Under the pieces are notes generated by a model, which saw nothing but the letters and a program-made list of their open reading frames with translations, did not search any database and had not been told where the DNA came from. Positions 1 through 10,317 of a DNA stretch of 10,341 nt are shown one piece after another. The stretch lies in contig JAFRLD010000077.1 of assembly GCA_017431395.1 (NCBI GenBank), positions 1-10,341 on the forward strand. The letters are read 5' to 3'. Each line of letters starts with the position of its first letter. The first letter of the stretch is position 1. The DNA is from Bacillota bacterium. GTDB lineage: Bacteria > Bacillota > Clostridia > Peptostreptococcales > Anaerovoracaceae. The position numbers and the translations under genes were made by a program.

Positions 1-876
1 GGAAAAGAGCTCTTCGAGGGCGGCCTGTTCAGAGGCGTCCATCGTAGTCTCCCGCACCTTCGGCGGAGCATCGTGATCATGATCATGCGCGCCATCATGG
101 GTGTGCGCCAGATGCTGGTTGGAGCGGCCCATGCCGTAGATGAGCTCCAGGATATGTACAGCCTCGAAGCCATTCTTCTTCATGGCATTGCGGACATCGA
201 TGCTGCTGGTCAGGAACGGGATCTTCGAGACATCGGCAGGGTCGATCTCAGGCTGGGAAGTGCCAGCCTCGCCGCCATCCGCGCCATCCGCGCCATCTGC
301 GCCAGCAGAACCAGTCCCGGTGCTCCCGGCTTCATACAGCACCGCCCCCATATTCTCCGCCAGTTCCCGGACCGCCGGTTCGAACCCGGCAGAGGTCTCT
401 GCTCCACGCGAGGATGCACCGCCATGAGATACACCCCCGGCGCCGGACAGGTCCGGTTCCGAGATCCGGTAAAGCTCCCGGCTGCAGCCGCCGCTGATAT
501 TATGCGAGAGCATTTCATCATAGATCGAAACGACGGGGATCTCGGTCAGGATCCTGCGAAAGAACTTCATATCTTCGGGATTCGTGACGATCACGGTCGG
601 TTTACCAAGGCTTCTCCAGCGGGTCAGGAGCCGTTCGGACCACTTCCGGTTCAGGAGAGGGTCCGCGCCTTCCCTGCCTTTGCAGAGAAAGATGGCCAGG
701 TCGGGATGTTGGTGTCGAAGTGAATCGTACATCAAAACAACCAGCTCCGGTTCGGACTGGGCGAGCGCCAGACCCGGGAACAGGGCATATTCGCATTTAT
801 CCAAAGGCTGGCCCGTCGCAGGGTCCAGCGGCGCGCGTACGAGATACGCGGCTTCGTTCAGAAAATCACTGGTCAT
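1..876 (-). CDS. Degenerate HdrB/CCG-like domain protein with His-rich segment (partial, runs off left edge)
   Basis: The frame is open from ATG at 876 to the window edge, giving 292 residues with no stop, so the C-terminus is missing. The stop codon of the upstream desulfurase gene overlaps the ribosome binding site (TAAGGAGG, then ATG), which supports this start and translational coupling. Residues 30-122 read like the cysteine-rich CCG domain of HdrB-type proteins as I remember it: LFPG at 32-35, PELV at 43-46, a PDLAIFLC segment at 58-65, LGKPTVIV at 90-97 and EIPVVSIYDE at 112-121. The expected cluster cysteines are mostly gone: Leu36 follows LFPG, CKG replaces CCG at 65-67, and NPED at 99-102 replaces the CxxC. 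Residues 140-215 are Gly/Ala/Ser-rich and include a GAD repeat. Residues 220-256 look folded again (LELIYGMG at 243-250). A His/Asp-rich stretch at 255-269 could bind metal. There is no signal peptide, so it is probably cytoplasmic. The function is not recognised, and the HdrB relation is inferred from memory of the family. Confidence 0.6.
   Translation of the reverse strand, partial: MTSDFLNEAAYLVRAPLDPATGQPLDKCEYALFPGLALAQSEPELVVLMYDSLRHQHPDLAIFLCKGREGADPLLNRKWSERLLTRWRSLGKPTVIVTNPEDMKFFRRILTEIPVVSIYDEMLSHNISGGCSRELYRISEPDLSGAGGVSHGGASSRGAETSAGFEPAVRELAENMGAVLYEAGSTGTGSAGADGADGADGGEAGTSQPEIDPADVSKIPFLTSSIDVRNAMKKNGFEAVHILELIYGMGRSNQHLAHTHDGAHDHDHDAPPKVRETTMDASEQAALEELFS
274..303 (-). repeat. 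9-bp tandem repeat encoding Gly-Ala-Asp units
   Basis: Three and a third copies of a 9-base unit (gccatccgc on the plus strand, one copy with a single change) lie inside the partial minus-strand gene. They encode consecutive Gly-Ala-Asp triplets at about residues 192-200, within a low-complexity linker. Such in-frame repeats can change copy number by slippage without breaking the reading frame. Confidence 0.7.
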
Positions 877-887
877 GAAAAGCCTCC

Positions 888-2027
888 TTATGCTTCTTCC
901 GCGATCTCCCGGACCGCATCAAGGAAGGCATCGATCTCTTCAGAAGTAGTGAAGAGCCCCGGGCTGACCCGGACGGTGCCGTTCAGATCGAAAGTGCCGA
1001 GCATCCGGTGGGCGTCCGGTGCGCACTGAAGACCGGAGCGAACCGAAATGTTGTAATACGTTTCAAGGATCATGGCGACATCCGCGCAATCCATGTCCTC
1101 GATATTAAAGGATACGGCAGCAGCTCTGGGCGGGGTAAGGGGGCCATAGACGGTCACCTTCGGGATCGCCACCAGCCCGTCGATCAGGGTCTGCAGTGTC
1201 TTTTGCTCCTCGTGATAGATCGCGCTGACCGAGCGCTCCAGGATATAACGGGCGCCGGCGGCAAGACCTGCGATACCAACGGTATTGGGGGTTCCGGCCT
1301 CATAGTAATAGGGGAGCTGCTCCGGCTGCAGGCGGACTTCCGAGAACACGCCGGTCCCGCCGGAACGGATCGGGCGGGGTGAAACAGAAGGCGCCACATA
1401 AAGTGCTCCCGTCCCGGTCGGCCCTAATAAAGACTTGTGGCCCGGGAAAGCCAGAAGATCTATGTGCATCTTCTGAACATCGATAGGAATCGCGCCGGCT
1501 GACTGGGAGGCATCCACCATGAAGGGTATGCCGGCGTCATGACAGACTGCGCCGATCTCCTCGATCGGATTAAGAGCCCCGGTCACATTCGAAGCGTGCG
1601 TCACAACTACGAGTTTCGTCTCCGGCCGGATCGCCTCGCGGATCTTCTCGGGATCTGCCCCGCTTACCGGATCGGTCTCCACCTTCGTGACCGCGACCCC
1701 GGCGTCCTCCAGATAGGCCAGCGGCCGGGTCACGGCGTTGTGCTCCATCCGGCTCGTGATCACGTGATCACCGGCCGTGAGCATCCCCTGAAGTCCCAGA
1801 TTGATCGCGTCCGTCGCATTCAGTGTGAAGATGATGCGTTTTGGTTCAGAGACATGAAAAAGCTGGGCCAAAGCGGCCCGTGCCTCATTGACATCCGTGG
1901 CTGCGGCCTTTGACTGTTCGGAGCTTCCGCGCCCGGGATTGCCTCCCCGGCGGATGGCGTCCGAAACCGCGTCATACACAGGCTCAGGCTTGGGCCAGGA
2001 TGTTGCCGCGTTATCTAAATAAATCAT
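888..2027 (-). CDS. Cysteine desulfurase family protein (class V aminotransferase fold, EF2568-like)
   Basis: This PLP enzyme is expected to remove sulfur (or selenium) from cysteine (or selenocysteine) and hold it as a persulfide for transfer. The start is set at 2027: a perfect AAGGAG lies just upstream, and the protein then begins MIYLDNAATSWPKP, the usual N-terminus of the family. An in-frame ATG at 2084 would add 19 unrelated residues. The 379-residue length is normal. Visible landmarks are His96 in MEHNA, Asp172 in VDASQSAG, the PLP lysine Lys198 in FPGHKS, and the sulfur-carrying Cys335 in SGLQCAPDAH. The catalytic residues look intact. The closest family I know is TIGR01977 (EF2568-type), which in Enterococcus faecalis lies in a selenium-dependent molybdenum hydroxylase locus. 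Its position divergent from a molybdenum hydroxylase agrees with that. It could supply the terminal Mo=S or Mo=Se ligand, or load the carrier protein at 6284; both roles are inference. Gene 1-876 follows in the same operon. Confidence 0.93.
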   Translation of the reverse strand: MIYLDNAATSWPKPEPVYDAVSDAIRRGGNPGRGSSEQSKAAATDVNEARAALAQLFHVSEPKRIIFTLNATDAINLGLQGMLTAGDHVITSRMEHNAVTRPLAYLEDAGVAVTKVETDPVSGADPEKIREAIRPETKLVVVTHASNVTGALNPIEEIGAVCHDAGIPFMVDASQSAGAIPIDVQKMHIDLLAFPGHKSLLGPTGTGALYVAPSVSPRPIRSGGTGVFSEVRLQPEQLPYYYEAGTPNTVGIAGLAAGARYILERSVSAIYHEEQKTLQTLIDGLVAIPKVTVYGPLTPPRAAAVSFNIEDMDCADVAMILETYYNISVRSGLQCAPDAHRMLGTFDLNGTVRVSPGLFTTSEEIDAFLDAVREIAEEA

Positions 2028-2277: not shown

Positions 2278-5154
2278 ATGAATTTTAAGAAGATGACACT
2301 GAAGATCAACGGCGCGGACCGTATGTTCATCTGTAATCCGGAAAAGGATACTCTGGCGGACGTTATTCGCCGACTGGGACTGACCGGAACGAAGATCGGC
2401 TGCGGGACAGGCGTCTGCGGCGCATGCACCGTCATTCTGAACGGCAAGCTGGTCCGCTCCTGCATGAGAAAGATCTCGAAGGTGGAGGAGTACAGCGAAG
2501 TGACCACGATCGAAGGTATCGGACAGCCGAACTTCCTGCATCCGATTCAGGTCGCGTTCATGCATCACGGTGCGGTACAGTGCGGATTCTGTATCCCGGG
2601 CTTCATCGTATCGACTTACCAGCTTTTGCAGGAGAATCCGGATCCGACCAGAGAAGAGGTCAGGGACTGGTTCACTAAGAACAGGAACATCTGCCGCTGC
2701 ACAGGCTATAAGCAGATCGTCGACTCCGTCATGCTGGCAGCTAAGTGCCTGCGCGGGGAGATCACGGTAGAAGACCTGAAGATCCCGGAAGCAGCACCTG
2801 GCGAACAGTACGGCAAACCGCTCCTGCGTCCGTGCAACCTGGCCAGAGTCTGCGGCGTAGAGGACTACGGTGATGACATCGAGCTGAAGATGCCGGAAGG
2901 CACCCTGCACGCGGTCATGGTACAGCCGAGAGTCACCTTCCACGCGAAGATCCTGAGCATCAATACCGAAGAAGCGGAGAAGATGCCGGGCGTTTACAAG
3001 ATCGTAACAGCGAAGGATGTCAAGGAAGCCGGATGCGACAACCGCGTAGCGTTCTTCAGCTTCTCACCGAGAACACTGGCGACCGAGAAGTCCCACTATG
3101 TCATTGCGGATGAGAAGATCATGAACTACGGCGACTGCATCGCGGTAGCGGTAGCGGATACCAAGCAGCACGCTAGAGAAGCAGCAGCGAAGGTCACCTT
3201 CGAATATGAGCAGCTGCCGGAATACAGAAATTATCTGGATGCAGTCAAGCCGGATGCCATCCGGATCCACGACGACCATCCGAACATGTGGTGCGTCCAG
3301 CCGACCATCAAGGGTGCGGGACACGACACGGACAAGCTGTTCGAGACAGCACCGTACGTGGTAGAGGGAAGCTTCTACTCCCAGAGAGAGCCGCACGGGC
3401 AGATCGAATCCGATACGATCCAGGCATACTTTGACGCGGACGGGATTCTTTGCGTCCACTGCAAGGCCATGGCCATCGGTGCTCACCTGACCGACATCTC
3501 GGAAGCTACAGGCATTCCGGAAGAGAAGATCCGTGTCATCGCGAACCCGACGGGAGCATCCTTCGGATGGTCCACCTTCGGACAGTCCTATGCGCTGGCA
3601 GCGGAAGTCTGCATGGCATGCGACAACATGCCGGTAGCCGTCTCCATGACTTATCAGGAGCACGTCGCTTATACCGGTAAGCGTGCTCCGTCCTTCTCCA
3701 ACTCCAGACTTGCCTGCGACGAAAACGGCAAGATCATCGCGGCGGAATGGGATTTCGGTCTCGACCACGGCTCCTACAACGAGCTGGGTGATGACCTGAC
3801 CTGGAGACCGGCGAGATTCACCTACTTCCCATACAATGTACCGAACGTCAAGGGCCTGGCCAGAGTCGCGGCGACGAACCACAACTACGGTACCGCCTAC
3901 AGAGGCTACGGTTCCCCGCAGTCCTACACATGCTCCGAAGCCATGATGGATATGATGGCAGAGAAAATCGGCATGGATCCGTTCGATATCCGCTACATCA
4001 ACATCGCTCGGCCGGGTGATCTGAACGTCAACAGCAAGCCGTTCAGAGAGTACCCGATGGAAGGCATGATGGATAAGCTGAAACCGATCTATGAAGATGC
4101 CAAGAAAGAAGTGGCCGAGTGGAACGAGACCCACGAAGACGTCAGAAAGGGCGTCGGTATCGCATGGGGCGGCTACAACGTTACCGAGGGCGCGGCAGAC
4201 CAGTGCACGCTGGGGATCGAGCTGGCGCCGGGCGGCAAGTTCATCAAGTACGATACCTGGCAGGATGTCGGCCAGGGTGGCGATGTCGGTTCTCTGATCG
4301 TCACGCTGGAAGCGCTGAAGGAATTCGGCGTCACCTCGAAGGATATCATCCTGCGGCAGAACGACAGCGTCTATGGAGTCGACTCCGGATCCTCCGCATC
4401 TTCCCGCCAGCACTACATGAACAGTAAGGCACTGGTCATGGCAGTGGATAAGCTGAAGGAAGCTATGCGCAAGCCGGATGGCACCTACCGGACCTACGAA
4501 GAGATGGTGGCGGAAGGCATCCCGACCAGATACGATGCACAGTACACCAACTCCGATGACAGCACGCTGTCCGACCTGAACCCGGATACAGGTGTTGGTG
4601 AGCCGACCCCGGCATTCACCTACTCCCTGTACATGGCGATCGTCGAAGTCGATATGAAGACCGGCAAGACCAAGGTCGACAAGATCGTCGGCATCGATGA
4701 TGTTGGCGTGATCGGTAACCCGGTATGCCTGGACGGACAGGCTTACAGCGGCATCGCTCACTCCATCGGATATGCTCTCTATGAGGACTACGACGATGTC
4801 AAGAAACACAACAACCTGGCCGGCATGGGCATCGCAACAGCGAACATGCTGCCGGATGACATCGAGCTGATCCACATGTGCACCCCGAGAGACACCAACC
4901 CGTTCGGTTCCTCCGGCGGATCCGAAGCATTCCAGTCCGGTGACCACATGGCAGTCATCAACGCGATCAACAACGCGACCGGCGTAAGGATCCACGAGCT
5001 GCCGGCACGGCCTGAGAAGATCAAGGCGGGCATCGAGGCACTGGCTAAGGGCGAGCCGAACCCGAACGTACCGGAGAAGTACTTCCTCGGCTCCGACTTC
5101 CAGGAGACCATGGAGGACATCCGCAAGAATCCGTGCATCACGGACGAAGAGTAG
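2278..5154 (+). CDS. MOP-type molybdenum hydroxylase (aldehyde oxidoreductase family), paralogue 1
   Basis: This 958-residue xanthine oxidase-family protein is organised like the aldehyde oxidoreductase MOP of Desulfovibrio gigas: Fe-S domains fused to the Mo domains, with no FAD domain. The start at 2278 has AGGAGG six bases upstream, and the paralogue at 10317 begins with nearly the same residues. The plant-type [2Fe-2S] centre uses Cys42, 47, 50 and 62; the second uses Cys102, 105, 139 and 141 (QCGFC, CRCTGY). The molybdopterin-cytosine-dinucleotide region shows NPTGASFGW (423-431), RGYGSPQ (542-548) and GQGGD (665-669). Glu883, in GSSGGSEAFQS, aligns with the catalytic Glu of the MOP GVGE motif. 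The family hydroxylates aldehydes, purines or other heterocycles with water-derived oxygen. With no FAD domain, electrons should leave to a ferredoxin- or flavodoxin-like partner not encoded here. No signal peptide is seen, so it is probably cytoplasmic. The substrate is unknown. It is about 50 residues longer than the 907 I recall for MOP, partly from a C-terminal tail. Confidence 0.93.
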   Translation: MNFKKMTLKINGADRMFICNPEKDTLADVIRRLGLTGTKIGCGTGVCGACTVILNGKLVRSCMRKISKVEEYSEVTTIEGIGQPNFLHPIQVAFMHHGAVQCGFCIPGFIVSTYQLLQENPDPTREEVRDWFTKNRNICRCTGYKQIVDSVMLAAKCLRGEITVEDLKIPEAAPGEQYGKPLLRPCNLARVCGVEDYGDDIELKMPEGTLHAVMVQPRVTFHAKILSINTEEAEKMPGVYKIVTAKDVKEAGCDNRVAFFSFSPRTLATEKSHYVIADEKIMNYGDCIAVAVADTKQHAREAAAKVTFEYEQLPEYRNYLDAVKPDAIRIHDDHPNMWCVQPTIKGAGHDTDKLFETAPYVVEGSFYSQREPHGQIESDTIQAYFDADGILCVHCKAMAIGAHLTDISEATGIPEEKIRVIANPTGASFGWSTFGQSYALAAEVCMACDNMPVAVSMTYQEHVAYTGKRAPSFSNSRLACDENGKIIAAEWDFGLDHGSYNELGDDLTWRPARFTYFPYNVPNVKGLARVAATNHNYGTAYRGYGSPQSYTCSEAMMDMMAEKIGMDPFDIRYINIARPGDLNVNSKPFREYPMEGMMDKLKPIYEDAKKEVAEWNETHEDVRKGVGIAWGGYNVTEGAADQCTLGIELAPGGKFIKYDTWQDVGQGGDVGSLIVTLEALKEFGVTSKDIILRQNDSVYGVDSGSSASSRQHYMNSKALVMAVDKLKEAMRKPDGTYRTYEEMVAEGIPTRYDAQYTNSDDSTLSDLNPDTGVGEPTPAFTYSLYMAIVEVDMKTGKTKVDKIVGIDDVGVIGNPVCLDGQAYSGIAHSIGYALYEDYDDVKKHNNLAGMGIATANMLPDDIELIHMCTPRDTNPFGSSGGSEAFQSGDHMAVINAINNATGVRIHELPARPEKIKAGIEALAKGEPNPNVPEKYFLGSDFQETMEDIRKNPCITDEE

Positions 5155-5196
5155 CCGAAAGTAGAGTGGAGACTACCTTCAAAATATGATAAAATG

Positions 5197-5232
5197 AATG
5201 CAGGGAAGCCGCAGGTGGTTTCCCTGCATTTT
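5197..5232 (+). terminator. Intrinsic terminator-like hairpin after the first hydroxylase
   Basis: AATGCAGGGAA (5197-5207) pairs perfectly with TTCCCTGCATT (5220-5230). Three further pairs, one of them G-T, extend the stem to 14 bp with a six-base loop at 5211-5216. A TTTT run at 5229-5232 ends the structure. It lies 43 bases after the hydroxylase stop and 24 bases before the E1-like gene, so it should separate or attenuate transcription between them. Confidence 0.75.
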
Positions 5233-5256
5233 GTCAGACAGGAAAGAAGGAAACCA

Positions 5257-6282
5257 ATGCAAGTCGGAAGATATCACAGACAGGAGATCTTCTATCCCAT
5301 AGGGAAAGAAGGCCAGGAGAAACTGGCGGCCGGTCGGGTCTGCATCATCGGGATCGGGGCGCTTGGCGGTTCGGTGGCGGCGATGCTGGCGCAGGCAGGC
5401 GTCGGGTACCTCAGGCTCATCGACCGCGACATCGTAGAGCTCACGAATCTCCAAAGGCAGGTCTTATTTACCGAACAAGACGTGGAGGATCAGGTGCCGA
5501 AGGCGGAAGCGGCCCGGGAACATCTGTCCCGGATGAATTCCGAGATCGAGATCGATGCCAGGATCATCGACGCCAACCCGTATAACATAGAGAAGCTGAT
5601 CACGGACGTGGATGTGGTCGTGGACGGGCTCGACAATCTGGAGACCAGGTACCTGCTCAACGAGGCCTGCCAGAAGAATGGGATCAAGTACGTCTACGGC
5701 GGCGTCGTGGGCAGCGGCGGTATGGTCATGAACGTATTGCCGGGAGATGGCCCCTGCCTGGAGTGCCTGCTCGGTCCGCTGCCGGAGGAGGGCTCCTATG
5801 ATACCTGCGATACCGTCGGGGTCATCAGCCCGATCACCAACATCGTAGCTTCCTATGAGGCGGCAGAGGCTATGAAGATCCTGATCGGATCGGAATCCCT
5901 GCTGCATCAGGCGATCTCCGTGGACGCCTGGGACAGCTACACGGAGTTCTTCGATGTGGATCAGGATCCTGAGTGTCCGGTCTGCGGTAAGCACCAGTAT
6001 ACGAGGCTGGAGCACCGGCAGAAGACCTATTCGGCCAGCCTTTGCGGGCACGATGCTTACCAGATCACCCCGGAGGATGATGGATCGTTTAATTACGATG
6101 CGGTCGTAGCGGCCTTAGAACAGGAAGGTACCGTCGAGAAGAAAAAATTCTTCACGACTTTCGTCAATGATGAAGCAGACCTCAAGCTTTTTCCGGACGG
6201 ACGTGCTATAATAAACCATGTGGCCAGCGGTGAAGCGGCCCAGGAGGTATTCGCGAAATACATCGATCGGCAGGAGCGGTAA
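5257..6282 (+). CDS. ThiF/MoeB/HesA-family E1-like adenylyltransferase
   Basis: Proteins of this family use ATP to adenylate the C-terminal glycine of a small beta-grasp sulfur carrier. The start is set at 5257 because an AAGAAGGA site precedes it and the protein then reads MQVGRYHRQ, matching the usual RYxRQ opening; an in-frame ATG at 5194 lies within the terminator hairpin region. The product has 341 residues. Landmarks are the nucleotide-binding GIGALGG at 32-38, the D-x-V-x-x-TNLQRQ segment around 58-68, DGLDN at 123-127, the probable catalytic Cys184 in DTCDTVGVISP, and a structural zinc site from Cys167/170 and Cys240/243. A C-terminal domain (about 255-338, with LFPDGRA at 311-317) occurs in other long ThiF/MoeB-like proteins. 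Its stop is two bases before the carrier gene, so the two almost certainly work together. Neither ThiG nor MoaE is nearby, so a thiamine or ordinary molybdopterin role is not indicated. Confidence 0.9.
   Translation: MQVGRYHRQEIFYPIGKEGQEKLAAGRVCIIGIGALGGSVAAMLAQAGVGYLRLIDRDIVELTNLQRQVLFTEQDVEDQVPKAEAAREHLSRMNSEIEIDARIIDANPYNIEKLITDVDVVVDGLDNLETRYLLNEACQKNGIKYVYGGVVGSGGMVMNVLPGDGPCLECLLGPLPEEGSYDTCDTVGVISPITNIVASYEAAEAMKILIGSESLLHQAISVDAWDSYTEFFDVDQDPECPVCGKHQYTRLEHRQKTYSASLCGHDAYQITPEDDGSFNYDAVVAALEQEGTVEKKKFFTTFVNDEADLKLFPDGRAIINHVASGEAAQEVFAKYIDRQER
6204..6212 (+). promoter_or_regulatory. Extended -10 motif inside the E1-like gene
   Basis: TGCTATAAT is a perfect extended -10 motif, 72 bases before the carrier start at 6284. 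It has no clear -35 partner and lies in coding sequence (Arg-Ala-Ile-Ile-Asn). It could give the carrier and methyltransferase extra transcription, but a chance match is quite possible. Confidence 0.25.
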
Positions 6283-6283
6283 T

Positions 6284-6523
6284 ATGAAGATAAAGATATT
6301 ATTCAATGGGCCCGTCCGTCAGCTCAACGGCTGGAAGAACGTGGCCAACATCGAACTTCCGGATGGATCGACAGGAAATGATCTCTGCGATTATTTCAAT
6401 ATCATTCCGGGCAAGACCAGACTTTATGGTTTCCTGATCCGGGACGGCAAGAAGATCAAGGAAGAAGAAGAACTCCACGACGGAGACACCATTAAAGTTA
6501 ACGGCAAGACATCAGGAGGTTGA
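6284..6523 (+). CDS. MoaD/ThiS-like ubiquitin-fold sulfur carrier protein
   Basis: This 79-residue protein has the size and ends expected of a beta-grasp sulfur carrier. It opens with a beta-strand (MKIKILFNG), has an LPDGSTGNDL segment at 25-34, a strand with IRDGKKI at 52-58, an LHDGDTIKV segment at 64-72, and ends in Gly78-Gly79. A free C-terminal diglycine is the site that E1-like enzymes adenylate and that then carries sulfur as a thiocarboxylate. The start at 6284 has CAGGAG eight bases upstream, inside the last codons of the E1-like gene. The gene starts two bases after that stop, so it is the obvious partner. It could act in molybdenum cofactor maturation or as a carrier for another sulfur transfer. 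By sequence alone it cannot be assigned to MoaD or ThiS; the molybdenum enzymes nearby favour a MoaD-like role. The Gly-Gly codons double as the ribosome binding site of the next gene. Confidence 0.85.
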   Translation: MKIKILFNGPVRQLNGWKNVANIELPDGSTGNDLCDYFNIIPGKTRLYGFLIRDGKKIKEEEELHDGDTIKVNGKTSGG

Positions 6524-6524
6524 T

Positions 6525-7214
6525 ATGGCGATTTTAAGACCCGGCGGTCTGGAACTGACGGACAGGGGGATGGAACTGGCAGAGTTTTCGAAGGGCAGCC
6601 GGATCCTGGATGTCGGATGCGGGGAAGGCGACAGCGTCGCGCATCTGAATGAGGATCTCGGGATGGACGCGGAAGGGATCGATATGAATCTCGTCCGGAT
6701 CTCGGACGCTAAGGAACAGCATCCGGGGATCAATGTCAATTTCGGGGACGGGGAGTTCCTGGACGCCTATATGTCATTCACTTTTGATGGGGTCCTGATG
6801 GAGGGGTCCCTCTCCCAGATCAATATGCCGGATGAAGCCCTGCATGAGGCCTACTGTGTGATGAAAAAAGGCGGCAAGCTGATCATCAGCGATCTCTATG
6901 AGATCGACCCGGACCCGCAGCAGATGAAGGCCGTCCGGATCGAGGCGGACCGGCAGGCCCGGATGCCTCACAAGGAGGGAGAATGCGAAGACCGCGGGCT
7001 GAAGTTCACGGACTTCCGGTTCGAGGGAGCGTTCTATGAGGAACCCCTGCGCCGCATGATCGAGGAAGTCGGATTCAAGATCACGGGATTTGAGGATCAT
7101 TCGGAGAATGCAGAGGAGTTCTTCGAGTATTTCCCGCATCTTAACACAGAGTCCGGCGGCAGGAAGCGCCGCATTGGCTATTTCCTGCTGACGGCGGAGA
7201 AGCCGGGGAAATAA
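6525..7214 (+). CDS. Class I SAM-dependent methyltransferase
   Basis: This 229-residue protein has the Rossmann-fold methyltransferase core. Motif I is ILDVGCGEGDSV at about 27-38, an acidic residue after strand 2 lies in GIDMN at about 52-56, and a GGKLIISDLYEID segment at about 120-132 fits the late-core strands. The start at 6525 comes one base after the carrier stop and is preceded by AGGAGG formed from the Gly-Gly codons of the carrier, so the pair is translationally coupled. The N-terminal LRPGGLELT resembles, as I recall, a methyltransferase family named after DVU_1556, which lies beside the Mop aldehyde oxidoreductase gene of Desulfovibrio vulgaris. That makes a role linked to this enzyme class likely, but the methyl acceptor (cofactor, protein or metabolite) is unknown. 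The final residues are polar and hold no membrane segment, so it is probably cytoplasmic. Confidence 0.85.
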   Translation: MAILRPGGLELTDRGMELAEFSKGSRILDVGCGEGDSVAHLNEDLGMDAEGIDMNLVRISDAKEQHPGINVNFGDGEFLDAYMSFTFDGVLMEGSLSQINMPDEALHEAYCVMKKGGKLIISDLYEIDPDPQQMKAVRIEADRQARMPHKEGECEDRGLKFTDFRFEGAFYEEPLRRMIEEVGFKITGFEDHSENAEEFFEYFPHLNTESGGRKRRIGYFLLTAEKPGK

Positions 7215-7236
7215 CAACATAGCGAGCAATAATAAA

Positions 7237-7268
7237 AAAGGACCGTTCATCGAGTTGAACGGTCCTTT
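7237..7268. terminator. Bidirectional intrinsic terminator between convergent genes
   Basis: AAAGGACCGTTCA (7237-7249) and TGAACGGTCCTTT (7256-7268) form a perfect 13-bp stem with a six-base loop. A-rich sequence before the stem gives a T-run for minus-strand transcription, and TTTCT follows on the plus strand. It can therefore stop both the methyltransferase operon and the convergent hydroxylase transcript. Confidence 0.88.
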
Positions 7269-7290
7269 CTCTATGGACTAAGGTGTGTCC

Positions 7291-7309
7291 AGCCTTTGCA
7301 TGAAAGGCT
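7291..7309. repeat. Small inverted repeat at the 3' end of the second hydroxylase
   Basis: AGCCTTT (7291-7297) and AAAGGCT (7303-7309) form a 7-bp stem with a five-base loop, touching the stop codon of the minus-strand gene. It has no T-run on the minus strand, so it is probably not a terminator itself. It may protect the 3' end of the transcript, or be chance. Confidence 0.3.
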
Positions 7310-10300
7310 TACTTACGGATCTTGTCTCTGTAGTTGAGGTACTGGTCCGCCTGATCCGGCTTCCAGCGGACGCCCTCAGCACCCAGCTCGCCGAATTCGA
7401 TGTCATCCGGCAGGGTCGGGGACATCGGATTGTCCTTGATCTGCTTCACTGCATCGTACAGGTCAGAACCGAGGAAGTACTTCTCCGGCTTGTTCGGGTT
7501 CGGTTTGCCTTCGGCCTTGGCCTTGATACCAGCCAGGACTTTTTCCTTGCTTGCCGGCAGCTCGTAGATACGGACGCCGACCGCGTTGTTGATGGCGTTG
7601 ATGACAGCCATGTGGTCAGAGGACTGGAATGCCTCGGACGCTCCGGAGGAACCGAACGGACCACGCGGATCTTCGCCGTCAATGTGGATGTAGTTGAAGT
7701 TCGGATAGTCCGGGACGTCCTTGATGTACGGCATGCCGGCAGCAGCCATGTTCCAGTGTTTCTTGACGTCTTCGTAGTTCTCGGAGAGAGCGAAGCCGAT
7801 CGCGTGGGACATACCGCCGTAGATCTGGCCTTCGACCGCCTGGATGTTGCCCGGCTTGCCGATCCACTCGACGCAGGTCATGCCTGTGCACTGGGTCTTA
7901 CCGGTAGCGACTTCTACGTCAACGGTCGCCAGGAACAGAGCGTAGGTATAAGTATAGGTCGGGTTGCCTGTTCCATCGTTCGGATCGAGGTCATAGAAGT
8001 AGTTGTATTCATCGATGGTCGCCCAGTCGCCGGGGTATCTTGTCGGCAGGCCTTCGGCTACCATTTCGTCATAGGTTCTGTAGGTCCCGTCTTCTTTTCT
8101 CATGGCATCGGCGATGTTCTTCGCGGCCACGATGGAAGCCTTGCCGTTCGCGTAGTGGGATCTGGAACCGGCGGACTCACCCGTGTTCGGGCAGTACTTG
8201 GAGTCATCCTGGACCAGCTTGATGTCGTCCGGTGTGATGTTCGGGAAGTACGGCTTCAGGGCTTCCAGTGTACAGATCAGAGATCCCTGGTCACCGCCCT
8301 GGCCCTGATCCTGCCAGGTGTCGTATTTTCTGAACGTGCCATCCGGCATCAGCTCGATCGCCACGTGGGATTCATCGATGCCGCCCAGGCCGACATTGTA
8401 GCCGCCCCATGCGATGCCGACGCCCTTCTTGACGTCTTCGTGCTCCTTGTTCCAGGCTTCTGCTTCCGCCTTCTTCTCGTCATAGACCGGTTTCAGCTTA
8501 TCCATCATCTCTTCCATCGGATAGTGGAGATACGGCAGCTGGTTGACGTTGGTGTCTTCCGGTGTCCGTGCGATGTTGATGTATCTGAAGTCGAACGGAT
8601 CGATCCCGGCTTTTTCGGCCAGCATATCGACGATCGCTTCGGAGCAGGTGTAAGCCTGTGGTGCGCCGTAGCCTCTGTAGGCGGTGGTCCATACGTGGTT
8701 GCAGAGCGCCGCTCTGTTCATGCCGACTGCATTCGGAATGTAGTACGGGTAGAACATGAATCTGGAGGTCTTGGTCAGCTTGTCATCACCGAAGTCGGCG
8801 AAGCAGCCTGCGTCAAGTCCGCAATCCCATTCGCCGGCGATGAACTTGCCGTTCTCATCACAGGCCAGACGCGCGTTCCAATAGGACGGGGAGCGCTTGC
8901 CGGTGACAGCCATGAACTGCTTGTAATCCATGGACAGGGAGCATGGCATCTTGGTGACCATGGTGGCGTATGCGCAAAGTGTCCAGTTATGCGCGTTCAT
9001 CGCCCATCCGAAGGAACCGCCGGTCGGGTTCTCGATCAGGCGGATCTCCGTTTCGGAATCTAGACCCAGTGCGTTAGCCATCTCGTCCTTGTCCCAGTAG
9101 AGGGTCATGGTCTTGCAGTGGACGCACAGCTTGTTGTCTTCGTCATAATAGGTCTGTGCCACATCGCCCTCGATGGACATGTGCGGCTCTCTGGAGGAGT
9201 AGAAGGAACCTTCCACGGAGAAAGGCGCGTTCTCGATCATCTCCGGAACCTTCTCGTCATCGCCCTTCAGGACCGGCAGGTGGCAGTAGGTGTTCGGCGC
9301 ATATGTATCCGGCATCCAGTCGTATAACTGCTTGGCTGTCGGAGCGACCGCTTCCAGATAGTTCATGTAGGCTTCCAGTTCTTCGATCTCGACCTTGACC
9401 TTGTCAGCTGCAGCCTTGGCGTGATCTCTGGTGTCTGCGACCACCAGGGCGACTACATCGCCGTACCAGGTGATCTCATCCTCTGCCAGGATGTGGTGGT
9501 GCTCCTGCAGCTCCACGGTTCTTTCGGAGAATCCGAAAGCCATGAAGTGGTTCTTGCAGCCCAGCTCTTTGACGTCCTTGGCCGTGATGACCTTGACGAC
9601 GCCCGGCATCTTCTCTGCTTCTTCGAAGTCGATCTTCTTGATCTTCGCGTGATGGGTGATCCTCGGCATGACCATCTCGACCTTCAGGGTCTCTGCCGGC
9701 ATGTGCAGCTCGATGTCATCACCGTAGTCGCAGACACCGCAGGCCTTCGGCAGGGCGTTGGGTCTCTCCAGCGGCTTGCCGTAGAAGTTGCCGATGTCCT
9801 TGGTCCAGTCGTATCTGTAGTCCTCCACGGTCTTCTCGCCGCGCATGATCGCCGCCGCCGCCATGACTGCGTCTACGATCTGCTTGTAGCCGGTACATCT
9901 GCAGACGTTGCGGTGCTTATGGAACCAGTCTCTGACTTCCTCTCTCGTGGGATCGGGATTCTCCTGCAAAAGCTGGTAAGAGGATACGATGAAGCCCGGT
10001 ACGCAGTAACCGCACTGCACCGCGCCCATCGCGACCCACATGGACTGCAGGGGATGGGGGTAGTTCACGCTGCCGATACCCTCGACAGTGGTGACCTTCC
10101 GGTATTCCTCCATCTTGGACATCTTCTGCATGCAGGAGCGGACGACCTTGCCGTCAACGATGACGGAGCAGGCACCGCAGGCACCCATACCGCAGCCGAT
10201 CTTGGTTCCGGTCAGGCCCAGGCGACGCAAAACATCTGCCAAGGTATCCTTGGCAGGATCACAGATGAACATCCGGTCAGCGCCGTTGATGTTCAACGTC

Positions 10301-10317
10301 ATCTTTTTGAGATTCAT
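7309..10317 (-). CDS. MOP-type molybdenum hydroxylase (aldehyde oxidoreductase family), paralogue 2
   Basis: This 1002-residue protein is a full-length paralogue of the enzyme at 2278-5154, on the opposite strand. By eye 49 of the first 60 residues are identical. The start at 10317 has GGAGG seven bases upstream; the promoter is beyond the window. The two [2Fe-2S] centres are complete: Cys42, 47, 50 and 62, then Cys102, 105, 139 and 141. The Mo-domain landmarks are NPTGGSFGW (430-438), RGYGAPQ (548-554), GQGGD (672-676) and the probable catalytic Glu895 in GSSGASEAFQS. It has no FAD domain and no signal peptide, so it is a probable cytoplasmic enzyme that passes electrons to a separate carrier. 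It has a C-terminal tail of about 35 residues beyond the shared PEKYFLGSD segment. Differences from paralogue 1 in the channel-side loops (for example MAVTGKRSPSYWN against VAYTGKRAPSFSN) suggest a different substrate, which is inference. Length here counts residues to the stop codon at 7309-7311. Confidence 0.93.
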   Translation of the reverse strand: MNLKKMTLNINGADRMFICDPAKDTLADVLRRLGLTGTKIGCGMGACGACSVIVDGKVVRSCMQKMSKMEEYRKVTTVEGIGSVNYPHPLQSMWVAMGAVQCGYCVPGFIVSSYQLLQENPDPTREEVRDWFHKHRNVCRCTGYKQIVDAVMAAAAIMRGEKTVEDYRYDWTKDIGNFYGKPLERPNALPKACGVCDYGDDIELHMPAETLKVEMVMPRITHHAKIKKIDFEEAEKMPGVVKVITAKDVKELGCKNHFMAFGFSERTVELQEHHHILAEDEITWYGDVVALVVADTRDHAKAAADKVKVEIEELEAYMNYLEAVAPTAKQLYDWMPDTYAPNTYCHLPVLKGDDEKVPEMIENAPFSVEGSFYSSREPHMSIEGDVAQTYYDEDNKLCVHCKTMTLYWDKDEMANALGLDSETEIRLIENPTGGSFGWAMNAHNWTLCAYATMVTKMPCSLSMDYKQFMAVTGKRSPSYWNARLACDENGKFIAGEWDCGLDAGCFADFGDDKLTKTSRFMFYPYYIPNAVGMNRAALCNHVWTTAYRGYGAPQAYTCSEAIVDMLAEKAGIDPFDFRYINIARTPEDTNVNQLPYLHYPMEEMMDKLKPVYDEKKAEAEAWNKEHEDVKKGVGIAWGGYNVGLGGIDESHVAIELMPDGTFRKYDTWQDQGQGGDQGSLICTLEALKPYFPNITPDDIKLVQDDSKYCPNTGESAGSRSHYANGKASIVAAKNIADAMRKEDGTYRTYDEMVAEGLPTRYPGDWATIDEYNYFYDLDPNDGTGNPTYTYTYALFLATVDVEVATGKTQCTGMTCVEWIGKPGNIQAVEGQIYGGMSHAIGFALSENYEDVKKHWNMAAAGMPYIKDVPDYPNFNYIHIDGEDPRGPFGSSGASEAFQSSDHMAVINAINNAVGVRIYELPASKEKVLAGIKAKAEGKPNPNKPEKYFLGSDLYDAVKQIKDNPMSPTLPDDIEFGELGAEGVRWKPDQADQYLNYRDKIRK

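What the first reader, a model, noticed from the sequence alone, without database searches (positions are those of the whole stretch)
2278..10317. Two MOP-type molybdenum hydroxylases flank a compact E1-carrier-methyltransferase cassette
Two closely related full-length FAD-less hydroxylases face each other across three tightly coupled genes: a ThiF/MoeB-like E1, a Gly-Gly carrier and a methyltransferase. A cysteine desulfurase is divergent on the left. All three cassette genes can be read as maturation or sulfur-transfer functions. My hypothesis is a shared maturation module that gives both enzymes a modified or sulfurated cofactor. I recall similar methyltransferase genes beside mop in Desulfovibrio, so parts of this may be conserved, but I do not know of a described function.
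Basis: partly seen in the sequence, partly recalled or inferred. Interest (0 to 1): 0.75.

Follow-up and report, generated by a model that had tools for sequence, protein, structure and literature searches.

The report
Hydroxylase pair with sulfur-carrier genes
In some uncultured clostridia, two molybdenum-type aldehyde-oxidising enzymes are encoded beside their own small ubiquitin-like sulfur carrier and its activating enzyme, a gene set that recurs in related species and probably helps build the enzymes' metal cofactor, while the methyltransferase gene next to it is not part of the fixed set.

Summary
Observation confirmed: two intact Mop-type hydroxylases (58% identical) converge on an E1, a Gly-Gly carrier and a methyltransferase spaced 1 nt apart, with a divergent cysteine desulfurase. 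The trio is not a unit. In 18 of 49 same-genus genomes hydroxylase 1, E1 and carrier lie together (17 strictly adjacent); the methyltransferase is inside only in the window. In the 14 other cassette genomes where it was found, it sits with XdhC-like and MocA-like genes. The carrier model resembles MoaD; its relatives lie in AOR clusters, desulfurase-E1-carrier operons and one moaA-moaC-E1-carrier-Mop operon. Five genomes hold separate AOR-type and Mop-type carriers, which form two clades. Best reading: a MoaD/MoeB-type sulfur relay linked to Mop, a counterpart of published AOR-linked clusters. A sulfurated metal site is less likely. Not obligatory: 18 of 36 same-genus genomes with Mop lack the cassette. 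No MoaE was found in the 18 cassette genomes, so the partner for the last step is unknown.

The parts
1..876 (-). LEFT: His-rich protein of unknown function, cut by the contig end; resembles part of the dicluster-binding oxidoreductase NF045663
   Evidence: no Pfam match; NF045663 52.5 bits, profile 417-639 of 759, far below the cut-off of 530; seen beside the desulfurase in 13 of 18 cassette loci
888..2027 (-). cysteine desulfurase-like protein (TIGR01977, EF2568 type)
   Evidence: 428 bits against a cut-off of 377; RSGxxC loop in 13 of 14 cassette copies, the exception being a truncated copy, and lysine motif HKxxL in 14 of 14
2278..5154 (+). MOP1, Mop-type aldehyde oxidoreductase without FAD domain
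   Evidence: NF045668 1101.7 bits, cut-off 1100; aligned to D. desulfuricans/D. gigas enzymes 1dgj and 1sij over nearly full length
5257..6282 (+). E1: ThiF/MoeB-type adenylyltransferase with C-terminal extension, no rhodanese domain
   Evidence: PF00899 235 bits; TCDTxGV cysteine, GxGALG and two CxxC in 18 of 18 cassette copies
6284..6523 (+). carrier: 79-residue MoaD-like beta-grasp protein ending Gly-Gly
   Evidence: AlphaFold2 pLDDT 91; best PDB matches are small subunits of molybdopterin synthase; ThiS Pfam 18.9 bits, under cut-off
6525..7214 (+). SAM-dependent methyltransferase, DVU_1556-like; not part of the conserved cassette
   Evidence: NF045667 141 bits, cut-off 155; no copy or remnant between carrier and MOP2 in the relatives searched
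7234..7271 (-). terminator-like stem in the convergent gap
   Evidence: 16 pairs, loop of 6, T tail on the minus strand
7309..10317 (-). MOP2, second Mop-type aldehyde oxidoreductase, from another Mop clade than MOP1
   Evidence: NF045668 1084.6 bits, just under the cut-off of 1100; aligned to 1dgj and 1sij; separate clade

Best explanation
The fixed part of the locus is a cofactor-building cassette for two Mop-type aldehyde hydroxylases. The cysteine desulfurase supplies persulfide sulfur; the E1 adenylates the carrier's Gly-Gly end, which becomes a thiocarboxylate; the carrier gives sulfur to the pterin precursor to form the dithiolene of the molybdopterin that ends up in MOP1 and MOP2, the role of MoaD/MoeB elsewhere. 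It is a Mop-linked counterpart of the known AOR-linked MoaD/MoeB clusters, and some genomes keep one pair for each enzyme class. The methyltransferase belongs to a second Mop-linked maturation group (XdhC-like and MocA-like genes) and in this species lies behind the carrier. Shown here: gene content, recurrence, intact motifs, MoaD-like predicted fold, separate clades, neighbours. Inferred: thiocarboxylate chemistry, dithiolene as target, dedication to Mop. Unknown: what stands in for MoaE, and what the methyltransferase methylates.
Against: No MoaE in the 18 cassette genomes, so canonical molybdopterin synthase cannot be formed with a known partner. 18 of 36 same-genus genomes with Mop lack the cassette; 6 of these have no carrier of this family at all. 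E1 and carrier score below the curated cut-offs of MoeB, ThiF and ThiS families. In the E1 tree the fork joining cassette E1s to the desulfurase operons and G020 has only 90/92 support. G000 is 79% complete, so absence of AOR or MoaE there is weak. No biochemistry exists.
Confidence: 0.5

Rival explanations
1. The carrier hands sulfur to the metal site: it sulfurates the finished Mo cofactor or the enzyme-bound site, giving the sulfido ligand of xanthine-oxidase-family enzymes.
For: Hydroxylase, desulfurase, E1 and carrier lie together; enzymes of this family usually carry that ligand and XdhC-type factors are usual for it (PMC2997495, abstract in a search listing).
Against: The best-studied Mop enzyme works without the sulfido ligand (PMC3877041, abstract). 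XdhC-like genes are present separately in 14 of 14 other cassette genomes read. Relatives of the carrier sit with AOR and with moaA/moaC, not with sulfuration factors alone.
Confidence: 0.15
2. E1 and carrier are a general MoaD/MoeB pair for all pterin enzymes of the cell; lying between the hydroxylases is linkage without dedication.
For: In G000 no AOR and no other carrier of this family was found; G000 also has further hydroxylase-like genes of the XdhA type on contigs C90, C80 and C164 that need molybdopterin too.
Against: G246, G247, G251, G252 and G254 keep a second, AOR-type carrier in another clade, which a single general pair would not need.
Confidence: 0.22
3. The carrier works as a ubiquitin-like tag, joined by the E1 to proteins such as the hydroxylases, as SAMPs are.
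Against: The same features are normal for sulfur carriers; desulfurase and moa-type neighbours point to sulfur. I made no search for a deconjugating protease.
Confidence: 0.05
4. E1, carrier and methyltransferase form one functional trio that makes a methylated or otherwise modified cofactor.
For: 1-nt spacing of the three genes in the window; methyltransferase family strongly tied to Mop (29 of 31).
Against: In 17 other cassettes the methyltransferase is not between carrier and MOP2; 3 cassette genomes (G271, G278, G279) have no hit for it. In the 148 genomes the link of methyltransferase and E1 is weak (5 shared, p=0.05).
Confidence: 0.08

Closest known systems
AOR-linked MoaD/MoeB clusters proposed for tungsten cofactor (Iyer et al. 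2006, PMC1779556; aorD/aorE, PMC6365974)
   Same: A MoaD-like gene, often with a MoeB-type E1, next to the aldehyde-oxidising pterin enzyme; read there as dedicated cofactor synthesis (passages)
   Different: Here the enzyme is a Mop-type hydroxylase of the xanthine oxidase family, not AOR; the carriers form their own clade; a cysteine desulfurase and LEFT belong to the set
Molybdopterin synthase sulfur relay (MoaD, MoeB, desulfurase)
   Same: Carrier fold, Gly-Gly end, E1 motifs, desulfurase
   Different: No MoaE found; E1 and carrier below family cut-offs
Desulfovibrio Mop aldehyde oxidoreductase (1dgj, 1sij)
   Same: Domain order, cluster cysteine motifs and the active-site glutamate region
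   Different: MOP1 and MOP2 are longer at the C-terminus (958 and 1002 against 907 residues); substrate and metal untested
NCBIfam Mop-neighbour set NF045663 to NF045669 with NF045646 (DVU_1551, 1553, 1555, 1556 families, XdhC_rel_AOR, TrsS)
   Same: The methyltransferase, XdhC-like and MocA-like genes of relatives match this set
   Different: No E1 or carrier in that set as named; the window holds only its methyltransferase, the two Mop genes and a partial NF045663 relative

Membership tests
Mop-type aldehyde oxidoreductase (NF045668) | two [2Fe-2S] domains plus two Moco domains in one chain, no FAD domain | tested here: met
   Pfam, both proteins
Mop-type aldehyde oxidoreductase (NF045668) | curated score of 1100 bits | tested here: inconclusive
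   MOP1 1101.7 met, MOP2 1084.6 just missed
Mop-type aldehyde oxidoreductase (NF045668) | cluster cysteine motifs and active-site glutamate (residue role recalled) | tested here: met
   in the tree set 17 of 17 MOP1 and 10 of 10 MOP2 have the glutamate motif and CRCTGY
Mop-type aldehyde oxidoreductase (NF045668) | molybdenum cofactor bound, aldehyde oxidised | not testable with these tools
   needs protein
MoaD/ThiS sulfur carriers | beta-grasp fold with C-terminal Gly-Gly | tested here: met
   Gly-Gly in all 66 carriers put in the tree
MoaD/ThiS sulfur carriers | Pfam ThiS score of 22.5 bits | tested here: not met
   18.9 bits
Molybdopterin synthase (MoaD with MoaE) | MoaE in the genome | tested here: not met
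   none in G000 or the 17 other cassette genomes; draft genomes, G000 79% complete
MoeB/ThiF E1 enzymes | ThiF domain, nucleotide motif, catalytic-type cysteine, zinc CxxC pairs | tested here: met
MoeB/ThiF E1 enzymes | curated MoeB or ThiF score | tested here: not met
   MoeB TIGR02355 145 of 377, ThiF TIGR02356 228 of 275, PRK12475 315 of 510 bits
AOR-linked MoaD/MoeB cluster | AOR gene beside the pair | tested here: not met
   no AOR in the window and none found in G000
DVU_1556 family methyltransferase (NF045667) | curated score of 155 bits | tested here: not met
   141 bits; placed among genus members by tree
EF2568-type cysteine desulfurase (TIGR01977) | curated score of 377 bits | tested here: met
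   428 bits
Selenium-dependent molybdenum hydroxylase system | SelD and accessory genes with the hydroxylase | not tested
   considered because EF2568 belongs there (recalled; related papers only in a search listing)

The most novel reading that the evidence does not exclude
In clostridia without a detectable MoaE, pterin dithiolene is built by enzyme-class-specific sulfur relays: a cysteine desulfurase-E1-carrier set serves the two Mop hydroxylases while a second E1-carrier set serves AOR in the same cell, each handing sulfur to a partner other than MoaE, perhaps on the apo-hydroxylase itself. That would mean channelled cofactor assembly and an undiscovered molybdopterin synthase.
Probability: 0.25. 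Interest if true: 0.8.

Novelty: new variant of a known kind. Interest (0 to 1): 0.52.

Why it matters
A paper on acetogens says that a MoaE gene was not reported in any of them although they need molybdopterin (PMC5039349, passage). A small cassette that ties a desulfurase, an E1 and a carrier to two defined hydroxylases, in genomes where no MoaE was found, gives that open question a concrete genetic handle. AOR-type and Mop-type carriers in one genome make enzyme-specific cofactor supply directly testable.

Tried and rejected
Trio as a conserved unit: rejected. tblastn (E<=10) of the window methyltransferase against 16 of the 17 other cassette loci (L196, which ends at the carrier, left out) gave one real copy, beyond MOP2 in L191, and two chance-level matches (E above 4); nothing in a carrier-MOP2 gap.

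Recent tandem duplication of the hydroxylases: rejected. MOP1 (17 rows) and MOP2 (10 rows) fall in different, older Mop clades, each 100/100 (copies under 800 residues were left out).

MoCF-domain protein (MPTb) as MoaE substitute: not supported; among the loci in hand it also occurs in genomes that have MoaE, such as G053, G035 and G023.

MoaE missed because divergent: a model built from 11 of the 14 divergent MoaE sequences found gave the same 14 of 148 genomes. A negative link of cassette and MoaE in the genus (0 of 18 against 5 of 31) is not significant, p=0.14.

Riboswitch control: no Rfam match in the window. Of 8 relatives' loci scanned, two (L193, L202) have a Mo/W riboswitch, both beyond MOP2 and before other genes.

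Named genomes: the one genome-contig scan with E1 kept 80 loci, 37-47% identical E1s, almost all from other groups; I did not analyse their neighbourhoods. Fold search with the LEFT model (pLDDT 78) gave no PDB match at E<=0.001.

Rows dropped: from the carrier tree, low-scoring carriers (under 60 bits in the later loci, under 20 in the earlier) including the cut one of L134. From tallies, matches under my own limits (Mop 600, methyltransferase 110, E1 430 bits). Gene labels are best phmmer hits to reference proteins; those for moaA, moaC, MOSC, mogA, mobB, moeA, Tup transporters and the FeS protein I named by eye.
Full report
Observation. The window encodes, left to right: a gene running off the contig (1-876, minus), a cysteine desulfurase (888-2027, minus), MOP1 (2278-5154, plus), E1 (5257-6282, plus), carrier (6284-6523, plus), methyltransferase (6525-7214, plus) and MOP2 (7309-10317, minus). 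Both hydroxylases align to Desulfovibrio Mop structures 1dgj and 1sij over nearly their full length, with cluster cysteines and the active-site glutamate region kept. They are 58% identical to each other. MOP1 just passes the NCBIfam Mop cut-off (1101.7 against 1100) and MOP2 just misses it (1084.6).

Setting. The source is unnamed; close relatives of E1 and carrier are labelled Firmicutes/Bacillota, Clostridia and Clostridiales Family XIII MAGs. The genome held, G000, has 1.6 Mb in 255 contigs and is 79% complete; the window is the whole contig C100, so nothing beyond it can be seen.

The conserved unit. All 349 genomes held for the family were searched with a 14-row carrier model: 85 have a match, among them 36 of the 49 genomes of the genus. 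I read the neighbourhood of the carrier in all 36: 39 stretches from 34 genomes, the window, and G127. In 18 of the 36, MOP1, E1 and carrier lie on one strand; in 17 they are adjacent, and in G252 three ORFs lie between E1 and carrier. The desulfurase is seen in 14 of 18, LEFT in 13 of 18 and MOP2 on the same locus in 14 of 18; some of the misses are contig ends (G278, G274, G247, G279), and in G252 and G269 MOP2 was found farther off or on another contig. In 12 loci other than the window, MOP2 follows the carrier with nothing or one 126-residue ORF between; none has the methyltransferase there. The core is therefore LEFT-desulfurase / MOP1-E1-carrier / MOP2. Because loci were found by the carrier, a cassette that lost its carrier would be missed.

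The methyltransferase. In a draw of 148 family genomes, 31 have a methyltransferase of at least 110 bits to NF045667, and 29 of these have a Mop of at least 600 bits, against 36 of 148 overall (Fisher p=7e-22, relatedness not corrected; limits mine). In the genus 15 of the 18 cassette genomes have a match. I read its surroundings in the 14 other than the window: 12 (G254, G246, G252, G277, G247, G272, G274, G250, G260, G248, G276, G269) and 2 (G253, G251). In all 14 an XdhC-like and a MocA-like gene lie beside it, in 8 a CoA-ligase-like gene as well, and in 7 a moaA-, mogA- or moaC-like gene lies in the same stretch. The set answers to the NCBIfam families NF045663 to NF045669 and NF045646, tested on loci of G002, G127 and G053. 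So the methyltransferase is plausibly a maturation gene, but of another group; in the window it has come to lie behind the carrier, whose Gly-Gly codons (AGGAGG) look like its ribosome-binding site (by eye).

How it most likely works. Desulfurase to E1 to carrier thiocarboxylate to pterin dithiolene, for the hydroxylases next door. AOR-linked MoaD/MoeB clusters were read in this way for tungsten cofactor (PMC1779556, passages), and aorD/aorE of Aromatoleum are called MoaD-like putative maturation factors (PMC6365974, passages). A sulfido-ligand role is less likely, because the D. gigas enzyme does not need that ligand (PMC3877041, abstract and outline) and XdhC-like genes exist apart.

Results against. 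Mop does not need the cassette: of 36 same-genus genomes with a Mop of at least 600 bits, 18 have the cassette, 12 only AOR-type carriers, and 6 (G245, G266, G268, G270, G280, G281) no carrier found. In the 148-genome draw, 11 genomes have this full-length E1 type (at least 430 bits) and 36 have Mop; 10 are shared. MoaE is found in 5 of 49 genus genomes, none with the cassette, and in 14 of 148 family genomes, 4 of them with Mop; so 32 of 36 Mop genomes lack a detected MoaE, including G002 and G079, listed at 100% completeness. The last step of the proposed route therefore has no known enzyme here. Outside the genus, desulfurase-E1-carrier occurs with no Mop beside it in G001, G235, G236 and G237; whether the last three have Mop elsewhere was not tested.

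Literature. Nine searches of the held library listed no paper that by title or abstract describes an E1-carrier pair linked to Mop-type hydroxylases; the library holds open-licence papers only. In PMC1779556 the word xanthine does not occur. TrsS appears in a 2026 selenoproteome review as a table entry (PMC13188914, passages).

Verdict. It is a new variant of a known kind, of moderate interest, mainly for what it offers on cofactor synthesis in genomes without a detected MoaE. The odds are as in the draft of this report; checking changed wording and counts of what was examined, not the conclusions.

Noticed in passing
family-wide:: A divergent MoaE (28-39 bits to Pfam) occurs in only 14 of 148 family genomes, while 56 of 148 have AOR or Mop; 47 of these 56 have no MoaE found. 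How they make molybdopterin is open.
   Followed up: partly
window 1-876 (-) and relatives, e.g. L204:14224-15042, L134:11673-12608: LEFT is a conserved cassette neighbour with a motif HILELxYGMGxSNxHLxHxH followed by more histidines; it looks like a detached part of NF045663 with a possible metal-binding tail. Function unknown.
   Followed up: partly
L191, L204, L205, L207, next to LEFT: A 443-445-residue CoA-transferase-like gene follows LEFT in these four loci; the L204 copy matches butyryl-CoA:acetate CoA-transferase at 275 bits, under the cut-off of 675. It may hint at carboxylic acid metabolism around the hydroxylases.
   Followed up: partly
window 6510-6527: The codons of the carrier's Gly-Gly (AGGAGG) double as the apparent ribosome-binding site of the methyltransferase (by eye).
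   Followed up: no
L193:2060-2187 (-), L202:13115-13240 (+): Mo/W cofactor riboswitches (RF01055, 68 and 61 bits) lie beyond MOP2, before genes of 621 and 509 residues; the first has no Pfam match.
   Followed up: partly
G000 contigs C90, C80, C164 (L130, L131, L132): The window's genome has further xanthine dehydrogenase-like hydroxylase genes as separate subunits (XdhA-type 341 and 366 bits, under cut-off 780).
   Followed up: partly
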